Part shown: positions 58,822 to 60,960 of the stretch, in pieces
Numbering within the stretch: position 1 is the first letter of the stretch
Layout of the letters: each line of letters starts with the position of its first letter
From: Acidimicrobiales bacterium
Lineage (GTDB): Bacteria > Actinomycetota > Acidimicrobiia > Acidimicrobiales > Aldehydirespiratoraceae
Length of the DNA: 64,000 bases
Reading direction: 5' to 3'
Assembly (NCBI GenBank): GCA_040219515.1
Contig: JAVJSI010000018.1
Coordinates: 186,001-250,000 of the forward strand
Made by a program: the position numbers and the translations under genes
The notes under the pieces: generated by a model
Seen by the model: the letters and a program-made list of their open reading frames with translations, nothing else
Told to the model about the DNA's origin: nothing
The model's database searches: none

Positions 58822-60033
58822 TCAGGCCAGACAGTCGACGGGCGCGCGTCGGCCGAGGTCGAGATAGACCCGCCGCAGACGGGCGGCCATCGTGGTCCAC
58901 GTGTAGGACAGCGCCGCGTCGGCCGCGTGACGGGACATCTCGTCGGCCAGCAGCGGCGAATCGAGGATGCGGCGCGTGGCCGCTGCGAAGTCGCGAGGAT
59001 CGCGGCCGCTGATGCGGAATCCGGTGCGCCCTTCCTCGATGAGCGTGCGGAGCCCGCCCACGTCGGCAGCCACGACGGGTGTGCCACACGCGGCGGCCTC
59101 GAGGGCGACGAGGCCGAAGGACTCACTGCGCGACGGCACGAGACACACGTCGGCGGCCCGGTAGTAGGTCGACAGCACATGGTGGGGCTGCGGCGGAATC
59201 ATGTCGACACGATCGGTGAGGCCCCGATCGGCGATGAGCTTCTCGATCTTGCGCACCTCGTCGTCGCCGTCGTTGCCGCTCGCACCGCCGACGATCAGCA
59301 GGCGCGCGTCGTCGTGTCCGAGCTCGGCCAACGCCTCGACGGCGACGTCGACACCCTTGAGCGGCTGGATACGACCGACGAACAGCAGCAGGGGCTCGGC
59401 GCCCAGACCGAGTGCGGTGCGGGCGCCGTCACGGGCACCCGGAGAGAAAAATGCATGGTCGACACCGGGGGGAACCACCTCGACGCGGTCGGGGTCGGCC
59501 CCGTAGTGGGTGACGAGCTCGTGGAGTTCGGTGACCGAATTCGCGGTGATGACGTCCGCGCAGCGGATGACCTCGGACTCGGCGTGGATTCGGCGCTGCG
59601 GCTCGGCGTCGCCCGTCTCGGCCTTGACTCGGGCCAGCGTGTGGAACGTGGTGACCAGCGGCAGGTCGAGCTGATGCTTGAGCCGGTGACCGGCCACGCC
59701 GGAGAGCCAGTAGTTCGCGTGGATCACGTCGGCCGGACGCTCGGCCAGGTCGCGCCCGACCGCGTCGGTGAACTCGTCGACGATGTCGGGGAGTTCTTCC
59801 TTGGCCATCCCGATCGGGCCCGCGTCGATGTGGACCACGCGGAACCCCGGTTCCACGTCGACGACCTCGGGCAGATCGTGGGTCCAGCGGCGGACGTAGA
59901 CGGTTGCGTCGGTGCCGGCCTGCGCCAGCGACGACACGAGCTCGCGGATGTAGACGTTCATGCCCCCGGCATCGCCGTGGCCCGGCTGGACCAGGGGCGA
60001 CGTGTGCAGGGAGAGGACCGCGACTCGACTCAC
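58822..60033 (-). CDS. mshA: D-inositol-3-phosphate glycosyltransferase, mycothiol synthesis
   Basis: MshA transfers N-acetylglucosamine from UDP-GlcNAc to inositol-3-phosphate, the first step of mycothiol. The GTG at 60033, with GGAG six bases upstream, gives 403 residues and places RVAVLSLHTSPLVQPGHGDAGGMNVYI at the start, the family N-terminus. GRIQPLKGVDVAVEALAEL near residue 218 and SRSESFGLVALEAAACGTPVV near 307 are the GT4 nucleotide-sugar site. Mycothiol is the main low-molecular thiol of actinobacteria, which supports the assignment of the host. YbjN follows after three bases. Confidence 0.93.
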   Translation of the reverse strand: MSRVAVLSLHTSPLVQPGHGDAGGMNVYIRELVSSLAQAGTDATVYVRRWTHDLPEVVDVEPGFRVVHIDAGPIGMAKEELPDIVDEFTDAVGRDLAERPADVIHANYWLSGVAGHRLKHQLDLPLVTTFHTLARVKAETGDAEPQRRIHAESEVIRCADVITANSVTELHELVTHYGADPDRVEVVPPGVDHAFFSPGARDGARTALGLGAEPLLLFVGRIQPLKGVDVAVEALAELGHDDARLLIVGGASGNDGDDEVRKIEKLIADRGLTDRVDMIPPQPHHVLSTYYRAADVCLVPSRSESFGLVALEAAACGTPVVAADVGGLRTLIEEGRTGFRISGRDPRDFAAATRRILDSPLLADEMSRHAADAALSYTWTTMAARLRRVYLDLGRRAPVDCLA

Positions 60034-60094
60034 GTCATGCTCCAACGCGCGAGACCGGGACGACATTCCCGGCCCCGTCGCAGGTCGAGCATGA

Positions 60095-60622
60095 TCACGC
60101 CGGGGTGGCGGGCGGCTCTCCCGCTGCAATCCGACGGGCGAGTTCGCCGTTGAGCGCGTCGATGGTGGTGTGGAGCGACCGGCGGCTGCTCGAGAGTCGT
60201 TTCTCGAAGTCCCGCAGGCCGTGGATGGCGGTCGCGAGATCGTCGTCGCTCAGGCTGACGACGTCGGACATGACCGACGCGCTGACGACGTCGTCGAGCA
60301 CGGCGCTCAACGGCACGACCACGTCGTCGGGCGGATCGAGCTCCTGCTCCACGCGGCCCGAGCCCGGCGCGCGGACACCGTCGCTCAGCAGTTCGGGGAG
60401 CCGCGCCACGAGGTCGGCCAGGTCGCCGCCGCCACCGTCGGCTCGGCGCTGGGTCTCCGCGACGATCACGTCGAGGCGACCCTGGGTCAACCGACGGACA
60501 TAGGAGACGCCGTTCTCGAGGTCGGTGCACCTCGCTCGCTTGGCCCGGAGGTCGTTGGTCGCAACATCGGCCAGACCCGAGAGGAACTCGGGATCCAACA
60601 CGTGTTGCAGATCAGGGATCAT
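60095..60622 (-). CDS. rsiG: RsiG-like protein with two copies of the c-di-GMP-binding motif
   Basis: This 175-residue helical protein contains E36-S40-R43-Q47-D51 in [16 protein letters not shown], which exactly matches the E-x3-S-x2-R-x3-Q-x3-D motif of RsiG, the anti-sigma factor that binds c-di-GMP and holds sigma WhiG in Streptomyces. A second copy, E140-S144-R147-H151-D155 in [16 protein letters not shown], differs only by His for Gln. Two helices joined by a variable, acidic linker (60-135) fit RsiG. Its gene lies between mshA and a MoaD-like gene and is 61 bases from mshA. No sigma gene is nearby, so the target is not known. Confidence 0.75.
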
Positions 60623-60699: not shown

Positions 60700-60960
60700 C
60701 TACCGGGACCGGCGCGGCCCGCCGGACCCGCCCGAGACGGGGGGCAGCACCGCCACCTCGTCGTCGTCGGAAACGGGGTGGCTCCGCTCCGTGGCTTCCC
60801 CGTTGCACCACACCGCGGCGGTGTCGAGCACGCCCGCGAACACTTCGCCGTACTCGGCCACTGCCGCGTCGAGCACCTCCCCCACGGTGGCACCGGCGAA
60901 CTCGTCGGCTTTCGTACCGGCCGCCTCGCGGGCGGATGCGAACAAGCGAAGCTGTGCCAT
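60700..60960 (-). CDS. MoaD/ThiS-family sulfur carrier with C-terminal extension
   Basis: This 86-residue ubiquitin-like protein begins [20 protein letters not shown] and ends [18 protein letters not shown]. The family ends in Gly-Gly, which is adenylated and thiocarboxylated. Here the usual PPVxGG end falls at residues 73-78 but eight more residues follow, including a second Gly-Gly. The protein may need trimming, or the second Gly-Gly pair may not be used. The ATG at 60960 lies 66 bases from the divergent phosphatase. No other molybdopterin gene is present in the window. Confidence 0.8.

What the first reader, a model, noticed from the sequence alone, without database searches (positions are those of the whole stretch)
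60095..60622. RsiG-like c-di-GMP-binding protein with a degenerate second motif
The first motif fits E-x3-S-x2-R-x3-Q-x3-D exactly and the second differs only by His for Gln. In Streptomyces RsiG both motifs grip a c-di-GMP dimer and tether sigma WhiG. Its presence here, beside mshA and without a nearby sigma factor, would extend this signalling system to a deep actinobacterial lineage that does not make Streptomyces-type spores.
Basis: partly seen in the sequence, partly recalled or inferred. Interest (0 to 1): 0.6.

Follow-up and report, generated by a model that had tools for sequence, protein, structure and literature searches.

The report
Twin-motif RsiG anti-sigma factor gene
The gene encodes an ordinary member of a known family of signal-dependent brakes on a sigma factor, already reported from this group of bacteria, and its supposedly damaged second motif is the normal form there.

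Summary
The 175-aa ORF at 60095-60622 (minus strand) is a real gene and a twin-motif RsiG: Pfam RsiG E 4.6e-27; closest solved structure S. venezuelae RsiG. The second motif is not degenerate: His at that position is the norm in the lineage (68 of 80 loci), and a His-motif RsiG (Conexibacter) has measured c-di-GMP binding (PMC8325347). A WhiG sigma factor is present but unlinked, 273.7 bits, with the c-di-GMP-contact residues. Over 41 genomes WhiG occurs in 24 of 27 with RsiG and 0 of 14 without; one WhiG-less genome has a broken rsiG. The claimed extension to a deep lineage is already in print: Acidimicrobiales, 3 of 4 species. Linkage to mshA is conserved, 74 of 80 loci. Most likely the protein holds WhiG inactive when c-di-GMP is high. 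What WhiG controls here is unknown: no flagellin or PilM match in this genome, no enrichment of the flagellar promoter consensus. A second, single-motif RsiG in the assembly lies beyond an rRNA operon on a probably chimeric contig.

The parts
60095..60622 (-). rsiG: twin-motif RsiG anti-sigma factor, 175 aa
   Evidence: Pfam RsiG PF22802 E 4.6e-27, two stretches; start MIP[DE]L shared by close homologues
60470..60517 (-). motif 1, E36-x3-S40-x2-R43-x3-Q47-x3-D51, on the first long helix
   Evidence: S40, R43, Q47, D51 invariant in 26 aligned sequences
60158..60205 (-). motif 2, E140-x3-S144-x2-R147-x3-H151-x3-D155, on the last long helix
   Evidence: E140, S144, R147 invariant in 26 aligned sequences; position 151 is H in 68, F in 10, Q in 1, gap in 1 of 80 loci
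60440..60559 (-). predicted long helix, residues 22-61, first arm of the coiled coil
   Evidence: AlphaFold2 model, mean pLDDT 87.3, pTM 0.79
60125..60247 (-). predicted long helix, residues 126-166, second arm of the coiled coil
58822..60066 (-). mshA-like glycosyltransferase, next gene downstream (start chosen by eye)
   Evidence: TIGR03449 E 3.2e-118, 395.1 bits, below its cut-off of 462.5; co-directional downstream of rsiG in 74 of 80 loci
60700..60960 (-). ThiS/MoaD-like gene, next gene upstream
   Evidence: Pfam ThiS E 1.2e-14; a homologue was found somewhere in 62 of 80 loci and directly upstream in 37

Best explanation
The gene encodes a monomeric twin-motif RsiG. Its two motif-bearing helices form an antiparallel coiled coil that holds a dimer of c-di-GMP, with Gln47 stacking on one guanine and His151 on the other. 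When c-di-GMP is high, the loaded protein clamps the genome's unlinked WhiG sigma factor and keeps it inactive; when c-di-GMP falls, WhiG is freed. Shown here: family, predicted fold, motif conservation, presence of WhiG with the contact residues, and co-occurrence. Inferred from the Streptomyces and Rubrobacter work: ligand binding, complex formation and direction of control. Unknown: the WhiG regulon in this organism.
For: Pfam RsiG E 4.6e-27 with two stretches. phmmer to 6pfj RsiG E 1.6e-12 and to the single-motif RsiG entries 7lq2, 7lq3, 7lq4 E 0.0003-0.0007. AlphaFold2 model pLDDT 87.3; the only four Foldseek matches at E<=0.001 are RsiG chains; VIA-align Z 14.5 and 14.2 for RsiG, next row 8.2. 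WhiG in the genome at 273.7 bits, phmmer to S. venezuelae WhiG E 2.4e-87. Contact residues K57 24 of 24, G61 22 of 24, R62 24 of 24 WhiG sequences; seven lower-scoring FliA/WhiG-like sigmas, the own one on contig 12 among them, have neither the G nor the R. WhiG in 24 of 27 RsiG-bearing and 0 of 14 RsiG-less genomes, Fisher p 1.9e-8 without correction for kinship. G008 has neither an intact rsiG nor a WhiG match above 255 bits. 30 GGDEF match rows in the genome. His-motif RsiG of Conexibacter bound c-di-GMP, Kd 25 uM alone and 1.7 uM with WhiG (PMC8325347 section 7).
Against: No binding or interaction was measured for this protein. Two genomes with an intact rsiG lack a WhiG match above 255 bits: G005 (81% complete) and G012 (94% complete, 840 contigs). 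In two of the 24 WhiG genomes, G001 and G002, the WhiG match holds an in-frame TAG. The 255-bit line was drawn after seeing the gap in scores (259.5 to 204.8). The flagellar/WhiG promoter consensus is not enriched in this genome (24 places against 26 for the reversed control) or in 198 genomes of the class (72 listed against 69 by my hand count of the control columns). Helical bundles can give Z near 13 without kinship (note), so the fold evidence leans on the sequence evidence.
Confidence: 0.9

Rival explanations
1. RsiG fold retained but the second motif has lost ligand binding through Q to H, so the protein binds WhiG without c-di-GMP, or binds one c-di-GMP only (the 'degenerate' reading).
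For: H151 differs from the Gln of the family consensus; 10 of 80 related loci carry Phe there.
Against: His at 151 is conserved in 68 of 80 loci, with D155 in 75 of 80 and R147 in every row that is in frame. PMC8325347 calls His suitable for the stacking contact and measured binding by a His-motif RsiG.
Confidence: 0.05
2. An RsiG that has changed partner, for example to the other FliA/WhiG-like sigma on contig 12, or to a role tied to mycothiol synthesis, given its conserved place beside mshA.
For: rsiG lies co-directionally upstream of an mshA homologue in 74 of 80 loci; a second sigma above the TIGR02479 cut-off exists at G000:C12:80739-81401.
Against: The second sigma has neither the G61 nor the R62 contact, and close relatives of it occur in RsiG-less genomes (G026 80% and G040 67% identical), while WhiG tracks RsiG. 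In 41 genomes no second twin-motif rsiG was listed.
Confidence: 0.04
3. A chance coiled coil that fits the motif by accident.
For: Coiled-coil proteins are rich in E, R and Q (general knowledge).
Against: Pfam E 4.6e-27; homologues in 27 of 41 genomes, own included; 0 of 14 control genomes matched by the family model.
Confidence: 0.01

Closest known systems
Streptomyces venezuelae RsiG (PDB 6pfj, 6pfv; molecule named AmfC protein in the PDB table)
   Same: Twin motifs on two long helices, similar length, 31% identity over 145 aligned residues, WhiG present
   Different: His instead of Gln in motif 2; the regulon here is unknown and need not be sporulation
Twin-motif RsiG of Acidimicrobiales (PMC8325347, 3 of 4 species)
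   Same: Same lineage and architecture
   Different: The sections I read give no sequence or regulon for these; I did not see the supplement
Single-motif RsiG of Rubrobacteria and Thermoleophilia (PDB 7lq2, 7lq3, 7lq4; that all three are Rubrobacter entries is recalled)
   Same: Same motif, one copy; Conexibacter RsiG has His at the Gln position
   Different: Homodimer with one motif per chain; the gene here has both motifs in one chain

Membership tests
RsiG (twin-motif) | Matches the RsiG family model over the curated cut-off | tested here: met
   PF22802, 93.9 bits against 27, two stretches
RsiG (twin-motif) | Two E-x3-S-x2-R-x3-[Q/H]-x3-D motifs | tested here: met
   Both present, Q in the first and H in the second; the [Q/H] form is given in PMC8325347 section 5
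RsiG (twin-motif) | Antiparallel coiled coil with one motif on each long helix | tested here: met
   Predicted helices 22-61 and 126-166; the model superposes on RsiG chains, Z 14.5 and 14.2
RsiG (twin-motif) | WhiG sigma factor encoded in the same genome | tested here: met
   G000:C9:283536-284207, 273.7 bits; E 2.4e-87 to 6pfj WhiG
RsiG (twin-motif) | WhiG partner keeps the c-di-GMP-contacting K57, G61, R62 | tested here: met
   K, G, R at the aligned positions of the own WhiG
RsiG (twin-motif) | Binds a c-di-GMP dimer and WhiG in a ligand-dependent complex | not testable with these tools
   Needs purified proteins
RsiG (single-motif, homodimeric) | Only one motif per chain | tested here: not met
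   Two motifs in one chain

The most novel reading that the evidence does not exclude
In this part of the Acidimicrobiia the c-di-GMP/RsiG/WhiG switch runs a regulon that is neither spores, nor flagella, nor type IV pili: a third use of the same switch, possibly with a changed promoter preference.
Probability: 0.35. Interest if true: 0.5.

Novelty: new member of a known kind. Interest (0 to 1): 0.2.

Why it matters
As a member of a described family in an order where it is already reported, it matters little by itself. It adds detail: His in the second motif is normal in this lineage, RsiG tracks WhiG and is broken in the one well-covered WhiG-less genome that still carries its remains, and twin-motif rsiG sits beside mshA in most loci looked at. 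The open question is what WhiG transcribes in Acidimicrobiia, since marker genes of the two known non-spore outputs were not found in this genome.

Tried and rejected
Promoter search: TAAA-N15-GCCGATAA (-35 and -10 taken from PMC8325347; the spacer length is recalled). One mismatch: 0 in the own genome, 4 places in 7 genomes of the genus against 5 in the control columns. Two mismatches in the own genome: 24 against 26 for the reversed control. Exact with spacers 13-17 in 198 genomes of the class: 72 listed places against 69 by my hand count of the control columns. No enrichment, so no regulon could be proposed; the consensus is AT-rich in a GC-rich genome, the class sample was not limited to WhiG-bearing genomes, and the test is weak.

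Output markers: PilM_2 had no match in the own genome and is over cut-off in 12 of 41 genomes, 11 of them RsiG-bearing; Flagellin_N none in the own genome, 4 of 41 overall, 3 of them RsiG-bearing. Neither accounts for WhiG in the own genome. Divergent pilus or flagellar proteins could be missed; other pilus types were not tested.

Second RsiG in the genome: the single-motif hit at G000:C4:242490-242699 looked like a single-motif RsiG inside Acidimicrobiia. I rejected it as most likely a chimeric contig.

Counts and dropped rows: of 28 places the two G008 fragments were left out of alignment A1 (26 rows, own protein included). One search kept the best 80 of 286 confirmed stretches, so the 80 loci are the nearer relatives only; their titles mostly say Acidimicrobiia, Acidimicrobiales or Actinobacteria/Actinomycetes/Actinomycetota, but L085 says Acidobacteria and L090 and L103 say Bifidobacterium breve, and I did not check class for each. 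In one search all 80 were counted; motif-1 S, R and Q there are fixed by the scan pattern and carry no weight; L128 is the broken G008 gene, out of frame, and gives the gap at position 151. Some records are the same as genomes, so the two sets are not independent.

Literature: searches for Acidimicrob with WhiG, with RsiG, and with c-di-GMP plus sigma factor listed no paper that by its title and abstract treats the WhiG regulon in Acidimicrobiia. Seen of PMC8325347: abstract, sections 5, 7, 13, 14, 25 and passages; its supplement was not seen. PMC4255298: passages. PMC13232838: search listing only.

Full report
What is there. On the minus strand at 60095-60622 lies an ATG-started ORF of 175 aa. 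Pfam's RsiG family matches it at E 4.6e-27 with two stretches; NCBIfam gave only one sub-threshold match, E 0.083 to another family. By sequence the closest solved structure is S. venezuelae RsiG (6pfj, E 1.6e-12, residues 22-170), then three entries of single-motif RsiG, 7lq2, 7lq3 and 7lq4.

Whose genome. Six genomes of its genus include contigs whose lengths equal those of records titled Acidimicrobiales or Acidimicrobiia (for example G005 contig 369 and BQJV01000369.1, both 4064 bases), so I place it in the Acidimicrobiia by inference.

Fold. With an alignment of 26 sequences AlphaFold2 gives mean pLDDT 87.3 and pTM 0.79, with long helices at 22-61 and 126-166 carrying one motif each. The only Foldseek matches in the PDB at E<=0.001 are four RsiG chains. 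VIA-align gives Z 14.5 (rmsd 3.7, 155 aligned) and 14.2 (rmsd 3.1, 145 aligned) for RsiG, and 8.2 for the next, unrelated row.

The second motif is not degenerate. In the 26 aligned sequences position 151 is His in 23 and Phe in 3. In 80 loci, the best of 286 found in named genome records, it is His in 68, Phe in 10, Gln in 1 and a gap in 1, the gap being the broken G008 gene; D155 is kept in 75, and R147 in all rows, the out-of-frame row of L128 aside. Position 47 in motif 1 is Gln in all 26 sequences that were not selected by that motif. PMC8325347 writes the motif as E(X)3S(X)2R(X)3[Q/H](X)3D, says His often replaces Gln in the first motif and can make the same stacking contact, and measured c-di-GMP binding by Conexibacter RsiG, which has His: Kd 25 uM alone and 1.7 uM with WhiG, against 12 and 0.9 uM for the Gln-bearing Rubrobacter protein. 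The arrangement here, Gln first and His second, is the mirror of the substitution that paper describes. In the 14 twin-motif loci among 30 taken from elsewhere in the phylum the second-motif residue, read by eye, is Q in 8, H in 2 and F, L, M or I in one each, so this position is variable in general.

The partner. The genome has a WhiG at G000:C9:283536-284207, 273.7 bits to TIGR02479, best PDB match S. venezuelae WhiG at E 2.4e-87. It lies between a phage-integrase-family recombinase followed by dprA on one side and an M23 peptidase, rpsB and tsf on the other. PMC4255298 notes that whiG-like genes of actinobacteria show local synteny (passage). Residues matching WhiG K57, G61 and R62, which touch c-di-GMP in the known structures, are K in 24 of 24, G in 22 of 24 and R in 24 of 24 WhiG sequences; the second FliA/WhiG-like sigma of this genome, on contig 12, and six lower-scoring sigmas of other genomes have neither the G nor the R.

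Co-occurrence. Of 41 genomes, own included, 27 have RsiG. A WhiG above 255 bits is in 24 of these 27 and in 0 of the 14 others; Fisher p 1.9e-8, not corrected for kinship. The score line was drawn in the gap between 259.5 and 204.8 bits. In two of the 24, G001 and G002, the WhiG match holds an in-frame TAG. The three exceptions are G005 (81% complete), G012 (94%, 840 contigs) and G008 (96%). In G008 rsiG is broken: the reading frame changes, and compared with its congener G017 about a hundred bases are missing near the 5' end and there are further small gaps; the residue at the place of R147 reads Cys. So the one well-covered WhiG-less genome with traces of rsiG has lost the use of both. This is one case, but it fits a gene that is useful only with WhiG. 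The genome of the window has 30 GGDEF match rows, so c-di-GMP signalling is well provided for.

Surroundings. The order on the minus strand is ThiS/MoaD-like, rsiG, mshA-like, YbjN-like, proC, with 77 and 28 bases between the first three, probably one transcription unit (inference). In 74 of 80 loci an mshA homologue lies downstream in the same direction, at most about 2.7 kb away; of the 6 without, two records end within 300 bases. So 'beside mshA' is a trait of the lineage. Its meaning is unknown.

How it most likely works. By the published work on Streptomyces and Rubrobacter (PMC8325347), c-di-GMP-loaded RsiG binds WhiG and blocks it. I infer the same here. Family, predicted fold, motifs, partner and co-occurrence are shown; ligand binding, complex formation and physiology are not.

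What it controls. In Streptomyces the output is sporulation and in Rubrobacter type IV pili. In this genome I found no match to Flagellin_N or PilM_2, and the flagellar-type promoter consensus is not enriched here (24 against 26 control) or in 198 genomes of the class (72 against 69). The regulon is therefore open.

Novelty. RsiG in Acidimicrobiales was reported in 2021, 3 of 4 species. My sampling finds the family model matched in 140 of 197 genomes of the phylum. The find is a new member of a known kind.

A trap in the assembly. The RsiG model also matches G000:C4:242490-242699, a single-motif RsiG of about 95 aa. It would be notable, since PMC8325347 found single-motif forms only in Rubrobacteria and Thermoleophilia. 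But on contig C4 the 10-kb GC values go from 0.67-0.70 before to 0.71-0.75 after a complete rRNA operon at about 200.9-205.9 kb, a second, divergent apt gene lies beyond it, and the assembly is rated 4.96% contaminated. Of the 30 loci from elsewhere in the phylum, all 16 single-motif ones have homologues of its FHA and MerR neighbours beside rsiG and none of the 14 twin-motif ones does (flanks of about 1.5 kb). It is most likely a chimeric join at a ribosomal operon.

Noticed in passing
L059 8461-8748 (own genome, contig C4:242460-242747): Single-motif RsiG in the same assembly, beyond an rRNA operon where 10-kb GC goes from 0.67-0.70 to 0.71-0.75 and a second apt gene appears; contig C4 is probably a chimera of two actinobacteria.
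   Followed up: yes
L249-L278, with L059 8461-9940: In 30 loci from across the phylum, the 16 single-motif rsiG genes all have FHA and MerR homologues beside them and the 14 twin-motif ones none, while twin-motif rsiG of Acidimicrobiia sits beside mshA: two different conserved contexts for the two forms.
   Followed up: partly
L028 and L023 (genome G008, same contig as L128): rsiG broken by a deletion and frame changes in a genome without a WhiG match, while two congeners (G017, G023) keep both genes.
   Followed up: yes
L155 8563-9510 (own genome; family match C12:80739-81401): A second sigma over the FliA/WhiG cut-off (202 bits), 37% identical to WhiG, with close relatives in RsiG-less genomes and without two of the c-di-GMP contact residues; its neighbours were looked at as ORFs only, not searched by family.
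   Followed up: partly
window 58822-60066: The mshA-like gene scores below the curated MshA cut-off (395.1 against 462.5 bits), so the mycothiol assignment rests on a sub-threshold match.
   Followed up: no
L046 and L052 (genomes G001 and G002): The WhiG match of two congeners of the window's genome holds an in-frame TAG; decay or sequencing error was not decided.
   Followed up: no
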